Below are positions 46,144-54,391 of a stretch of 64,000 bases of DNA, piece by piece. A program made the translations under genes and the position numbers. Position 1 is the first letter of the stretch, and each line of letters begins with the position of its first letter. The stretch comes from Nocardioides cavernae. GTDB taxonomy: Bacteria > Actinomycetota > Actinomycetes > Propionibacteriales > Nocardioidaceae. Under the pieces are notes generated by a model. That model saw only the letters and a list, made by a program, of their open reading frames with translations, was not told the DNA's origin and ran no database searches. The stretch lies in NCBI RefSeq assembly GCF_016907475.1, contig NZ_JAFBCA010000001.1:3100001-3164000 (forward strand). The letters are read 5' to 3'.

Positions 46144-46187
46144 CCGTACCTCCTTCTCCGCCTCACGGGACGGATCGTTAAAGGATG
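46144..46187 (-). promoter_or_regulatory. PyrR-type RNA leader overlapping the carA ribosome binding site
   Basis: The RNA has the PyrR-loop core GUCCCGUGAGGCG followed by GAGAAGGAGG, closed by CCGU/ACGG (46144-46173). The Shine-Dalgarno AAGGAGGT is within the 3' side, so PyrR binding should block translation. The upstream AUCCUUUAACG (46174-46187) contains UCCUU, complementary to AAGGA of the same Shine-Dalgarno, and could form the alternative structure. Nearly identical to the leader of pyrR at 54328-54372. Confidence 0.75.
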
Positions 46188-46202
46188 TTCGAGCCGTCGC
46201 CG

Positions 46203-46208
46203 ACCCTA
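46203..46208 (-). promoter_or_regulatory. -10 box (TAGGGT) of the carA unit
   Basis: TAGGGT placed to start transcription near 46196, giving a leader of about 54 nt that holds the complete PyrR-type element. The pyrR unit has the same box in the same register. Confidence 0.55.
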
Positions 46209-46270
46209 CCAGCGAGGACGCGTCCCTCCGGCATCGTGTCGGCCTGTCGAGACGGCGTGCTCCCGCGGCC

Positions 46271-47959
46271 TCACCACGGTGTGAGTGCCAGCTCGGGGCC
46301 GCCCCACCGGCGGCGCAGCCAGCGGTCGTGCGAGGCGAGGACGACACCTCCCGGCGCGGTGGCGAGCGCCTCCTCCAGCTCCCCGGCGAGGGCGAGCGAG
46401 ACGTGGTTGGTCGGCTCGTCGAGCAGGAGGAGGTCGGGAGCGGCGGCGATCGCGACCGCCAGGCCGAGCCGCCGCCGCTGGCCGACCGACAGGCTGCCGA
46501 CGGGAGTGCGGTGGTCGCGCGGGTGCAGCAGCCCCAGCTCGCGCAGCGCCGGTGCGTCGGGCAGGTGCCGCACCGCGTCGTCGTACGTCGCCAGCGCGGA
46601 GCGGTTGCGGTCGGCCGCCTCCGGGTCCTGGGTGAGCTCGCGGACGGTGCGGGCAGAGACGTCGAGCGTGCCGCCCGTGGCTGCCAGCCGGCCGGACAGC
46701 ACGCCCAGCAGCGTCGACTTGCCCGACCCGTTGGGACCGGTCAGCATCAGGTGCTCCCCTGCCGCCAGGTCGAGGCGCTCCACCCGCACCCGCCCGGCGA
46801 CCTCGAGCCCGCGGGCCTGCACCAGCCGCCCGGTCGCCGCGGCCGTCAGGTGGCCGCGGAAGGCGAGCGGCGCCGGCGGCTTGCGCACCTGCTCGCGCTC
46901 GGCCACCTCGAGCCGGCGCTGGGCGTCCTTCTTGCGCCGGGCGAGGGTCTGGTCCACGCGCCCGCCCTTGAAGGAGTAGATGAACTTGTCGCCGTCGGTG
47001 GGGCCGCGGTCGTGCGCGATCGCCGAGGTGCCGATGCGGGTGGCGTCGCGCAGCCGCGCGATCTCCTCCTGCTGCGCGGCCCAGGTCTCCTCCCAGCGCC
47101 GGCGGGCGTCGGCGCGAGCGGCCTCGTAGGCCGACCACCCGCCCCCGAAGCGGCGCCCGCCGTTGCCGTCGGTGCCCAGCTCGCCGGCGTCGAGGTCGAC
47201 CAGGTCGGTGCACACGTCGTCGAGCAGCACGCGGTCGTGGCTGGCCAGCACGACGACGCCGGGCAGCTCGCGCAGGAAGCCGGTCAGGACCTCGATCGCG
47301 CCGTCGTCGAGGTGGTTGGTGGGCTCGTCGAGCAGCAGGCAGGACGGGCGCGTGGTCATGATCGTGGCCAGCGCGAGCCGGGTGCGCTGGCCGCCCGAGA
47401 GGGTCCCCACGACCCGGTCGGCCCCGAGGTCGGCGAGCCCCAGTCGAGCCGCTGCCACCTCGGCGCGCCGGTCGGCGTCCCAGGCGTCGTGCGCGACCGC
47501 CGCCTCGAGCGCGTGCTCGTACGCCGTGTCGCCGTCGGGGGTGCCGACCAGGGCGGCGAGCCGCTCGACGTCGGCGACGGCCGTCCGCAGCGGCGCCAGG
47601 GTCATCGCGAGCACCTCGGCGACCGTGGCGGTGTCGTGGAACGGCGGTTCCTGGCCGAGCAGCACGAGGTCGTCGGGCGCGGTGATCGAGCCCGCGACCC
47701 GCGCCCGCGCGGGCAGCCGACCGGCGACCGCCCGCAGGAGGGTCGACTTGCCGACGCCGTTCTCGCCGACGAGACCGATGCGGCGCCCCGGCTGGGCGAG
47801 CAGGTCGACCCCGGACAGGACCGTTCGGTCGGGGTAGGTCACCGACAGTCCGGAGACCACGAGCGGCGCGGGGCCGGCGGGGCCGGCGGGGCCGGCGGGG
47901 GTGGCGGGTGTGGCCGCGCCGGAGAGGCGCGCGGCGGATGACGAGGAGGAGGCAGGCAT
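46271..47959 (-). CDS. ABC-F family ATPase (ribosome protection or translation factor type)
   Basis: A 562-residue protein with two ABC ATPase domains joined by a linker and no membrane part, as in antibiotic-resistance and housekeeping ABC-F proteins that bind the ribosomal E site. ABC1 has Walker A GENGVGKST (65-73), LSGGQRTRLALA and LLLDEPTNHLDD. The linker has a basic helical KGGRVDQTLARRKKDAQRRLE. ABC2 has GPNGSGKST, LSVGQRRRLGLA and LLLDEPTNHVSLA. The first 35 residues are a Gly/Pro/Ala-rich tail. ATG 47959 follows GAAGGACG. The resistance spectrum cannot be read from sequence, but the leader (47964-48070) suggests ribosome-sensing control. Confidence 0.9.
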   Translation of the reverse strand: MPASSSSSAARLSGAATPATPAGPAGPAGPAPLVVSGLSVTYPDRTVLSGVDLLAQPGRRIGLVGENGVGKSTLLRAVAGRLPARARVAGSITAPDDLVLLGQEPPFHDTATVAEVLAMTLAPLRTAVADVERLAALVGTPDGDTAYEHALEAAVAHDAWDADRRAEVAAARLGLADLGADRVVGTLSGGQRTRLALATIMTTRPSCLLLDEPTNHLDDGAIEVLTGFLRELPGVVVLASHDRVLLDDVCTDLVDLDAGELGTDGNGGRRFGGGWSAYEAARADARRRWEETWAAQQEEIARLRDATRIGTSAIAHDRGPTDGDKFIYSFKGGRVDQTLARRKKDAQRRLEVAEREQVRKPPAPLAFRGHLTAAATGRLVQARGLEVAGRVRVERLDLAAGEHLMLTGPNGSGKSTLLGVLSGRLAATGGTLDVSARTVRELTQDPEAADRNRSALATYDDAVRHLPDAPALRELGLLHPRDHRTPVGSLSVGQRRRLGLAVAIAAAPDLLLLDEPTNHVSLALAGELEEALATAPGGVVLASHDRWLRRRWGGPELALTPW

Positions 47960-47963
47960 GCGG

Positions 47964-52817: not shown

Positions 52818-53755
52818 CAGGCAATTCCTCCCCAGGTGTCCCCGGCCAGCAGGTGGTAGAGCACGGCCATCCGGATCGCCAGGCCGCCGGAGACCTGCTC
52901 CAGCACGACCGACTGGGCCGCGTCGGCGGCGTCGGCGGCGATCTCGAGGCCGCGGTTCATCGGTCCCGGGTGGCAGATCGGGACGTCCGGCTTGAGCAGC
53001 GACAGGCGGTTGCGGGTCAGGCCGTAGCCGACGGTGTACTCCCGCGCGCTCGGGAAGAACGCTCCAGACATCCGCTCACGCTGGACGCGCAGCATCATCA
53101 CCGCGTCGGCCTCGGGCAGGACCGCGTCGATGTCGTACGACGTCTCGAAGCCGGCCGCGGCCGACCAGGCGCCGATCCCGCTCGGCATCAGCGTCGGTGG
53201 CGCGACCACGGTCACGCGGGCGCCGAGGCGGGTCAGGCACTGCACGTTGGACCGGAAGACCCGGCTGTGGGTCAGGTCGCCGATGATCGCGACGTGGCGG
53301 CCCTCGAGCGAGCCGAGGTGGCGCTGGAGGGTGTAGGCGTCGAGGAGCGCCTGGGTCGGGTGCTCGTGCATCCCGTCGCCCGCGTTGACGACCGCGGCGT
53401 CGACCCACTGGCTGACCTGGACGGCCGCCCCGCTGGCGGGGTGGCGGATGACGAGGCCGTCGACGCCCATCGCGCAGACGGTCAGGACGGTGTCGCGCAG
53501 GCTCTCGCCCTTGGACGTGCTCGACCCCTTGGCGCTGACGTTGATGACGTCGGCGGAGAGCCACTTGCCGGCGATCTCGAAGGACGACCGCGTGCGGGTG
53601 GAGTCCTCGAAGAACATGTTGACGACGGTGCGGCCCCGCAGCGCCGGCAGCTTCTTGACCTCGCGGCTCTGCACGTCGTGCATGTCGGCGGCGGTCTCGA
53701 AGAGCTGGAGGATCTCGTCGGTGGAGAGGTCGTCGATGGAGAGCAGGTGCTTCAC
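52817..53755 (-). CDS. pyrB: Aspartate carbamoyltransferase catalytic subunit
   Basis: A 312-residue transcarbamylase that condenses carbamoyl phosphate with aspartate. The carbamoyl-phosphate loop FFEDSTRTRSSFE is at 48-60 (STRTR 52-56). The second motif MHEHPTQALLDAYTL is near 133, and DLTHSRVFRSN is near 157. There is no regulatory PyrI gene, so feedback must come from PyrR or CarB. The GTG overlaps the pyrR stop by 4 nt. Confidence 0.97.
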   Translation of the reverse strand: MKHLLSIDDLSTDEILQLFETAADMHDVQSREVKKLPALRGRTVVNMFFEDSTRTRSSFEIAGKWLSADVINVSAKGSSTSKGESLRDTVLTVCAMGVDGLVIRHPASGAAVQVSQWVDAAVVNAGDGMHEHPTQALLDAYTLQRHLGSLEGRHVAIIGDLTHSRVFRSNVQCLTRLGARVTVVAPPTLMPSGIGAWSAAAGFETSYDIDAVLPEADAVMMLRVQRERMSGAFFPSAREYTVGYGLTRNRLSLLKPDVPICHPGPMNRGLEIAADAADAAQSVVLEQVSGGLAIRMAVLYHLLAGDTWGGIA

Positions 53756-54321
53756 GAGATCGTCACCTCGTCGGTGCCGTCGACCTCGGCCAGGCGAACG
53801 CTGACGCGCTCGGCGAGCGCGCTTGGGAGGTTCTTGCCGACGTGGTCGGCACGGATGGGCAGCTCGCGGTGCCCGCGGTCGACCAGGACCGCGAGGCGTA
53901 CGGCGCCGGGGCGACCGAGGTCGGCGAGGGCGTCGAGCGCGGCGCGGATGGTGCGGCCGGAGAAGAGGACGTCGTCGACGAGGACGACGATCTTCCCGTC
54001 GATCCCGCCGGGCGGCAGCGCCGTCTTGTGGGCACGCCGCGTGGGCTGCGAGCGCAGGTCGTCGCGGTACATCGTCACGTCGAGCTCGCCGACGGCGACG
54101 GGCGTGCCCTCGACGGCGGTGATCTTCTCGGCGATGCGCCGGGCGAGGGGCACGCCGCGGGTGTGCAGGCCGAGCAGCACCAGGTCGGTGGCGCCCTTGT
54201 TGCGCTCGAGCAGCTCGTGCGCGATCCGGGTCAGCGCCCGGGAGATGTCACGGGCGTCGAGGACGGTGCGGTCCGCTCTCCCGCTCGCGGGGTCGGTCAC
54301 GGTCTCTTCGGGGGCAGGCAT
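53752..54321 (-). CDS. pyrR: PyrR, bifunctional pyr regulator/uracil phosphoribosyltransferase
   Basis: A 189-residue RNA-binding regulator with a phosphoribosyltransferase fold. The PRPP-binding loop KIVVLVDDVLFSGRTIRAAL is near 100-120. LLGLHTRGVPLARRIAEKI and LDVTMYRDDLRSQ are family stretches, and LVDRGHRELPIRADHVGKNLP is near the C-terminus. It binds pyr leader RNA when UMP or UTP is high. In mycobacteria this blocks translation. The ATG is 12 nt after AAGGAGG, which sits in a PyrR-type element, so the gene should be under its own control. Confidence 0.96.
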   Translation of the reverse strand: MPAPEETVTDPASGRADRTVLDARDISRALTRIAHELLERNKGATDLVLLGLHTRGVPLARRIAEKITAVEGTPVAVGELDVTMYRDDLRSQPTRRAHKTALPPGGIDGKIVVLVDDVLFSGRTIRAALDALADLGRPGAVRLAVLVDRGHRELPIRADHVGKNLPSALAERVSVRLAEVDGTDEVTIS

Positions 54322-54327
54322 CTGCGC

Positions 54328-54372
54328 GCCGGACCTCCTTCTCCGCCTCACGGGACGGCTCGTTAAAGGATG
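54328..54372 (-). promoter_or_regulatory. PyrR-type RNA leader upstream of pyrR-pyrB-pyrC
   Basis: Same element as at carA: GUCCCGUGAGGCG then GAGAAGGAGG, closed here by GCCG/CGGC (54328-54359), with UCCUU in the preceding AUCCUUUAACG. Relative to carA two bases differ. The lost inner U-A pair is replaced by an outer G-C pair, so the stem keeps four pairs. Confidence 0.75.
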
Positions 54373-54385
54373 TCGATCGGTGGCG

Positions 54386-54391
54386 ACCCTA
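54386..54391 (-). promoter_or_regulatory. -10 box (TAGGGT) of pyrR-pyrB-pyrC
   Basis: TAGGGT in the same relative position as the box of the carA unit; the leader would be about 58 nt. Confidence 0.55.

What the first reader, a model, noticed from the sequence alone, without database searches (positions are those of the whole stretch)
46144..54391. Twin PyrR-type leaders control both pyrimidine units, with the Shine-Dalgarno inside the element
A block of about 40 nt upstream of carA (46144-46187) and pyrR (54328-54372) is almost identical. It contains the PyrR-loop core GUCCCGUGAGGCG and the AAGGAGG ribosome binding site. The two sites differ at two bases, and the closing stem keeps four pairs because a U-A pair is replaced by a G-C pair. 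UCCUU upstream can pair with AAGGA of the same Shine-Dalgarno, so an on/off RNA switch controlling translation is plausible. PyrR repression of translation is known in mycobacteria. A shared leader on two units split by 5.4 kb, with this alternative pairing, is worth testing.
Basis: partly seen in the sequence, partly recalled or inferred. Interest (0 to 1): 0.7.

Follow-up and report, generated by a model that had tools for sequence, protein, structure and literature searches.

The report
Twin PyrR loops on split pyrimidine operons
Two groups of pyrimidine-synthesis genes in this actinobacterium each begin with the same small RNA hairpin that hides the ribosome-binding site, very probably the known PyrR translational switch; the modest novelty is that the detached carA group carries its own copy of the switch.

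Summary
In detail: near-identical leaders precede carA (46143-46189, minus) and pyrR (54328-54374, minus), the only two such sites in the genome. They are PyrR-binding loops of actinobacterial type with the Shine-Dalgarno inside. The claimed U-A to G-C exchange is wrong: the pyrR leader has G facing an unchanged A. A covariance model matches 243 of 246 sampled class genomes (E up to 0.05), 231 of them once; 36 of 149 family genomes have two matches. In 56 family loci that I read, all 19 with pyrC and carA at least 666 bp apart have a carA loop; none of the 32 one-loop loci has a gap over 640 bp. All 24 carA loops have a -10-like box at nearly fixed distance. Most likely mechanism: PyrR with UMP locks the hairpin and blocks translation of both units, as reported for Mycobacterium smegmatis. 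A known kind; the second loop that accompanies operon splitting, and carA-only loops in a sister family, are the modest novelty. No binding or expression data.

The parts
46143..46189 (-). PyrR-loop leader of carA (47 nt model span)
   Evidence: R1 72.5 bits; Rfam RF00515 27.6 bits, below gathering 54
46180..46185 (-). 5' arm of lower stem (UCCUUU), pairs with GAAGGA of the Shine-Dalgarno region
   Evidence: Rfam alignment; pair counts
46161..46170 (-). PyrR-loop core UCCCGUGAGG of carA leader
   Evidence: sequence; RF00515 alignment
46149..46155 (-). AAGGAGG Shine-Dalgarno of carA, 3' arm of lower stem, 6 nt before the ATG
   Evidence: sequence
46203..46211 (-). extended -10-like box TGGTAGGGT of the carA leader
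   Evidence: 24 of 24 carA leaders have TANNNT ending 12-24 nt before CCTTTAA; shuffle expectation 1.1. No sigma-70 type promoter by the consensus scan
45015..46142 (-). carA (375 aa)
   Evidence: TIGR01368 438.8 bits, cut-off 307; the only full CarA match in the genome
41674..45015 (-). carB
   Evidence: NF003671 1615.8 bits for the enclosing frame
40640..41800 (-). pyrD, quinone-dependent, follows carB (start codon not settled)
   Evidence: NF003648 485 bits
54328..54374 (-). PyrR-loop leader of pyrR (47 nt model span)
   Evidence: R1 75.3 bits; RF00515 24.8 bits
54365..54370 (-). 5' arm of lower stem (UCCUUU)
54346..54355 (-). PyrR-loop core UCCCGUGAGG of pyrR leader
54334..54340 (-). AAGGAGG Shine-Dalgarno of pyrR, 12 nt before the ATG
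54386..54394 (-). extended -10-like box TGCTAGGGT of the pyrR leader
   Evidence: 58 of 60 pyrR leaders have the box; shuffle expectation 3.0
53752..54321 (-). pyrR (189 aa)
   Evidence: NF003547 274.9 bits, cut-off 230; PDB PyrR chains; the only PyrR match in the genome
52817..53755 (-). pyrB
   Evidence: NF002032 395 bits
51549..52817 (-). pyrC
   Evidence: NF006836 640 bits
46271..51332 (.). unrelated genes between the two units: ABC-F ATPase (-), CoA-transferase-like (+), glyoxalase-like (- and +), DUF3060 (+)

Best explanation
Each leader is one PyrR-binding hairpin that fills most of a short 5' untranslated region. Its lower stem pairs UCCUUU with the Shine-Dalgarno. When UMP is high, PyrR binds the UCCNGNGAGG loop, stabilises the hairpin, and the ribosome cannot start on pyrR (unit pyrR-pyrB-pyrC) or carA (unit carA-carB-pyrD). 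When UMP falls, PyrR leaves and the ribosome can compete with the short lower stem. The second loop, with its own promoter-like box, keeps carA under PyrR although unrelated genes on both strands now separate it from pyrR. Shown here: the sequences, the conserved and covarying hairpin, the conserved -10-like box, the genome-wide count, the association with a split operon. Inferred: PyrR binding, the UMP signal, the translational step, promoter activity and co-transcription.
For: RF00515 aligns over both loops with the same two stems. On 55 distinct leaders 96.9% of cells are paired in the structure versus 52-64% when slid; 16 cells changed on both sides versus 3.7 in shuffles and 0-6 when slid. 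On 31 distinct leaders that include the sister family, 44 such cells versus 17.0 in shuffles and 0-16 when slid. A match in 243 of 246 class genomes (E up to 0.05) and 147 of 149 family genomes (E up to 0.01). Of the three class genomes without a match, two (G246, G286) have no PyrR match either, and the third (G355) has a diverged loop before pyrR. All 61 loci read hold pyrR. The window encodes one PyrR. No terminator-like site lies in either leader and the AUG follows the Shine-Dalgarno by 6 and 12 nt, so attenuation has little room. The -10-like box is at nearly fixed distance in 24 of 24 carA and 58 of 60 pyrR leaders. PyrR-dependent translational repression in M. smegmatis: title and citation seen in PMC13328217 and PMC6455119 (passages); the paper itself is not held.
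Against: Rfam's gathering score is not reached (27.6 and 24.8 of 54). Two of five covariation measures do not stand out from shuffles: further pair types 11 versus 11.2 and 12 versus 11.0, and pairs with a double change 6 versus 4.6, reached by 87 of 500 shuffles. The alignments were fitted to the structure. The four CCUU/AAGG pairs never vary, so they do not prove pairing. Single-sequence folding is not exceptional: 59 (carA) and 217 (pyrR) of 1000 mononucleotide shuffles fold as stably, and with 80 nt of coding sequence the predicted lower stem falls to 0.43 and 0.26. No sigma-70 type promoter by the consensus scan. 22 of 38 sister-family genomes have no confident loop. No binding or expression data.
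Confidence: 0.87

Rival explanations
1. A protein-free two-state RNA switch: UCCUU alternately pairs with the Shine-Dalgarno or leaves it free.
For: UCCUU can pair AAGGA; with long coding sequence added, other folds compete.
Against: UCCUU/AAGGA is nested with the apical stem in one hairpin and does not exclude it. In the few best folds listed for the two short leaders the UCCUU arm stays on the Shine-Dalgarno, once in a shifted register. All 61 loci read carry pyrR.
Confidence: 0.05
2. The loop works by transcription attenuation, as in Bacillus.
For: RF00515 is an attenuator-length model; four sister-family pyrR loops end roughly 50-90 nt before the extrapolated start codon, in L126 with an inverted repeat seen by eye.
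Against: In the window the AUG follows the Shine-Dalgarno by 6 and 12 nt and no terminator-like site is there.
Confidence: 0.04
3. The carA copy is a relic or a fixed duplicate without function; carA is read from upstream.
For: An ABC-F gene on the same strand ends about 80 nt upstream of the carA leader.
Against: In the 24 loci with a carA loop the core and the -10-like box are both kept, over divergent lineages; twelve carA loops occur in the sister family with compensated stems.
Confidence: 0.04

Closest known systems
PyrR-dependent translational repression of the pyr operon, Mycobacterium smegmatis (Fields and Switzer 2007; citation seen in PMC13328217 and PMC6455119, paper not held)
   Same: PyrR, pyr leader, translation as the controlled step (from the title); Shine-Dalgarno within the loop (recalled, not read)
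   Different: There one operon (recalled); here two units with a loop each
Rfam RF00515 PyrR binding site (Bacillus-type attenuator model)
   Same: UCCNGNGAGG core, apical stem, internal loop, UCCUU/AAGGA lower stem
   Different: No terminator-like part found; score 24.8-27.6 against gathering 54; the 3' arm is the Shine-Dalgarno
Multi-unit PyrR regulons of Firmicutes, e.g. Streptococcus pneumoniae pyrFE, pyrKDb, pyrRB-carAB, uraA (passages of PMC6212727)
   Same: One PyrR, several separate units each with a loop
   Different: Described there as transcription termination; here translational geometry, in an actinobacterium

Membership tests
PyrR-binding loop (element bound by PyrR, any mode) | Loop core UCCNGNGAGG on an apical stem | tested here: met
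   Both leaders; apical stem with compensatory changes among relatives. The core consensus is recalled and agrees with the RF00515 alignment
PyrR-binding loop (element bound by PyrR, any mode) | Internal loop and lower stem UCCUU/AAGGA | tested here: met
   CCUU/AAGG kept in all 55 and all 31 distinct rows
PyrR-binding loop (element bound by PyrR, any mode) | In front of pyr genes in a genome with PyrR | tested here: met
PyrR-binding loop (element bound by PyrR, any mode) | Bound by PyrR with UMP | not testable with these tools
   Needs a binding assay
Rfam RF00515 as modelled | Gathering score 54 over the 115-position model | tested here: not met
   27.6 and 24.8 bits; none of 20 other loci tested reaches it either
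Rfam RF00515 as modelled | Terminator downstream of the loop | tested here: not met
   No terminator-like site at either leader by a consensus scan
Actinobacterial translational PyrR leader (M. smegmatis type) | Shine-Dalgarno in the 3' arm of the loop, start codon just downstream | tested here: met
   that this feature defines the type is recalled
Actinobacterial translational PyrR leader (M. smegmatis type) | Translation falls with uracil in a PyrR-dependent way | not testable with these tools
   Needs reporters

The most novel reading that the evidence does not exclude
The two loops are tuned differently and selection keeps the difference: at the foot of the apical stem the pyrR loop has G opposite A in 22 of 23 two-loop genomes matched (a competing register is predicted, mean probability of the canonical register 0.19), while the carA loop has U in 19 of 24 (mean 0.75 over the 23 pairs). 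PyrR would then shut carAB-pyrD before it shuts its own synthesis, a built-in order of repression that became possible when the operon split.
Probability: 0.15. Interest if true: 0.5.

Novelty: new member of a known kind. Interest (0 to 1): 0.33.

Why it matters
It is a clear natural case of how a bacterial operon can be split without losing common control: in all 19 split family loci examined (gap of 666 bp or more) the detached carA has its own RNA switch and a promoter-like box. The Rfam gathering threshold misses the loops tested here, so actinobacterial PyrR regulons may be under-annotated where that threshold is used. Two natural loops in one cell, one base apart in the hairpin, offer a way to measure how a single base sets the order of repression.

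Tried and rejected
Rejected: U-A to G-C compensation between the two leaders (the facing base is A in both). Rejected: alternative on/off pairing. Looked for further loops: none in the own genome besides the two; extra weak hits in G166 and G243 (26-28 bits) have no pyr gene within the roughly 3 kb fetched, so I count them as chance. Whether the carA loop arose once: the two-loop state needs at least 11 changes on a CarA+CarB tree and on a PyrB+PyrC tree, and the CarA+CarB data reject one clade (p-AU 0.00065). The trees are quick ones, poorly resolved, with long outgroup branches, and gain cannot be told from loss. The first alignment mixed strands because whole-genome loci are not turned; redone. 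A position-weight scan gave low scores to loops one base shorter; these were recovered by pattern and model. Two loci (L120, L122) miss the strict pattern but have model hits; the pyrR loop of L095 also misses it (model hit). The Wilcoxon values treat related genomes as independent and are not used.

Sampling: of 36 family genomes with two model matches I read the loci of 24, of 111 with one match 32; two (G015, G016) had none. The loci were chosen after the pattern search. Gaps rest on tblastn ends and extrapolated CarA starts. Nine of the 243 class matches have E above 0.001. The model R2 holds the loops of G310 and G355 in its training set, so these two match by construction.

Paper searches seen as listings only. 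Passages read.
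Full report
Observation. A chance pair of this length and likeness in 64 kb is expected about 2e-9 times. A pattern search of the own genome, 4.85 Mb in one contig, with up to 3 mismatches gave exactly these two sites and none with the reversed pattern. The genes are carA, carB, pyrD (quinone type) in one group and pyrR, pyrB, pyrC in the other; the genome has one PyrR match and one full CarA match. 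Between the groups lie unrelated genes on both strands, so carA can hardly be read through from pyrC.

What it is. At Rfam's gathering threshold nothing is found in the window. With a permissive threshold RF00515 (PyrR binding site) is the best match at both leaders, 27.6 and 24.8 bits against a gathering score of 54. The alignment shows the apical stem, the UCCNGNGAGG core, the one-sided internal loop and the lower stem UCCUU/AAGGA. I infer that the missing score belongs to the attenuator part that these leaders lack. Of 20 further loci that hold a loop by my models, 7 match RF00515 at E up to 1 (31.6-36.7 bits) and none reaches 54. Against a strong reading of this: a 2013 survey with Rfam motifs counted 211 PyrR sites over groups that included Corynebacteriaceae and Mycobacteriaceae, and names Actinobacteria among the groups with RNA-regulated nucleotide genes (passages of PMC3766115), so some actinobacterial sites may be annotated already.

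The second differing base lies beyond the lower stem.

Is the hairpin supported? A model (R1) built from 19 family leaders with this structure was used to gather leaders across the class. On 55 distinct rows 96.9% of cells are paired (52-64% when the partner is slid by 1-3 columns), with 16 doubly changed cells against 3.7 in shuffles and 0-6 when slid; the number of further pair types does not exceed shuffles (11 against 11.2). With the sister family added, 31 distinct rows, 91.0% are paired (45-56% when slid), with 44 doubly changed cells against 17.0 in shuffles and 0-16 when slid; pairs with a double change (6 against 4.6) and further types (12 against 11.0) do not stand out. These alignments were fitted to the structure, which favours it. 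The four CCUU/AAGG pairs never vary, so they say nothing by themselves. RNAalifold on the first set returns the lower and the apical helix. Single-sequence folds are not exceptional against mononucleotide shuffles (59 and 217 of 1000 as stable). The lower stem has probability near 0.99 in the leader with 10 nt of coding sequence, 0.86/0.80 with 40 nt and 0.43/0.26 with 80 nt (carA/pyrR).

How common. R1 has a match at E up to 0.05 in 243 of 246 class genomes of at least 95% completeness, nine of them with E above 0.001. Twelve show two or more matches: 10 of the 23 genomes of the window's family (own, same genus, same family) and 2 of the other 223, whose extra matches are weak and without a pyr gene in the stretch fetched. 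Of the three without a match, G246 and G286 have no PyrR match either and G355 has a diverged loop before pyrR. In the family, 147 of 149 have a match at E up to 0.01 and 36 have two: 24 of 36 in the window's own genus, 12 in three other genera.

Split operons and second loops. I read 60 loci plus the window: 56 of the family and 5 of other families. Among the 56, 24 have a carA loop. Their pyrC-carA gap is 86-204 bp in five and 666-13448 bp in nineteen. The 32 without a carA loop have gaps of -9 to 54 bp (20) or 452-640 bp (12); in all 32 carA lies in the same locus. So all 19 loci with a gap of 666 bp or more have the second loop. The loop also occurs with almost no insert, which fits a loop that came before the insert, though the reverse order is not excluded. 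In all 24, an extended -10-like box (commonest TGGTAGGGT, 11 of 24) ends 15-19 nt before CCTTTAA; shuffles give 1.1 of 24 and eight upstream control windows give 0. Among 60 pyrR leaders 58 have one, shuffles 3.0.

History. The two-loop state needs at least 11 changes on each of two quick trees, and the CarA+CarB data reject one clade. The PyrB+PyrC tree has two deep groups inside the family that cut across the CarA+CarB tree, which suggests that these units have been exchanged or replaced separately.

Sister family. With a broader model (R2, which has G310 and G355 in its training set), 16 of 38 genomes in the family of G310 have a confident loop (39.8 bits or more), one each: 12 directly in front of carA with an AAAGGA Shine-Dalgarno in the lower stem, 4 in front of pyrR, ending roughly 50-90 nt before the extrapolated start. 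The other 22 have none or weak matches only. In G310 pyrR lies 0.85 Mb from carA and I saw no loop before it; I did not check the other eleven for diverged pyrR loops beyond the model search.

Mechanism. The best reading is translational repression by PyrR with UMP at both units. PyrR-dependent translational repression in M. smegmatis is in print; I saw its title and citation in passages of two papers, not the paper. Multi-unit PyrR regulons are known in Firmicutes (passages of PMC6212727). A paper on ArgR of Streptomyces coelicolor reports ArgR as a regulator of pyrR, pyrA and pyrB (passages of PMC3293853), so carAB may have further control. A search of the held papers for Nocardioides with PyrR gave one paper, whose passages do not treat this; one for PyrR with Shine-Dalgarno, actinobacteria and pyrimidine gave four, seen as a listing. 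Most subscription papers are not in that library, so this is weak evidence of absence.

A possible difference between the two loops. In the 23 two-loop genomes with both loops matched, the base at the foot of the apical stem is G in 22 pyrR loops; in 24 carA loops it is U in 19, A in 3, G in 2. The predicted probability of the canonical apical pair is 0.19 on average for pyrR and 0.75 for carA over the 23 pairs. Against it: G is also the commonest base in one-loop pyrR leaders (25 of 35); the window itself shows only 0.16 against 0.33; the predicted openness of the Shine-Dalgarno is on average 0.21 for pyrR and 0.14 for carA but the other way round in the window (0.11 and 0.37); related genomes are not independent; and PyrR could pull either loop into register. 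I keep this as the novel reading at low probability.

Verdict. A real, well conserved regulatory element of a known kind, correctly spotted; the switch details are wrong. The doubling is a genuine though modest addition.

Noticed in passing
L176-L178, L180-L186, L189, L190 (family of G310): PyrR loop directly before carA in 12 of 38 sister-family genomes, with no second confident loop found by the model; in G310 pyrR is 0.85 Mb away without a visible loop.
   Followed up: partly
L126, L179, L187, L188 at about 1501-1625: In four sister-family genomes the pyrR loop ends roughly 50-90 nt before the extrapolated start codon, in L126 with an inverted repeat after it (by eye): possibly an attenuator-type PyrR leader in actinobacteria.
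   Followed up: no
window 51549-53755 and loci L063-L117: PyrB of the family falls in two groups (about 78-96% versus 58-64% identity to the window) and the PyrB+PyrC tree does not follow the CarA+CarB tree, suggesting separate transfer or replacement of pyrBC.
   Followed up: partly
window 38945-41800: carAB is followed by two kinds of dihydroorotate dehydrogenase: the quinone-dependent pyrD and PyrK-like plus class 1 PyrD-like frames, the latter below their NCBIfam cut-offs.
   Followed up: no
window leaders and 20 loci, against Rfam RF00515: None reaches the gathering score, so gathering-threshold annotation would miss these loops.
   Followed up: partly
L170 63-164, minus: c-di-GMP-II-GAG riboswitch match above its gathering score, near the pyr leader of that locus but on the opposite strand.
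   Followed up: no
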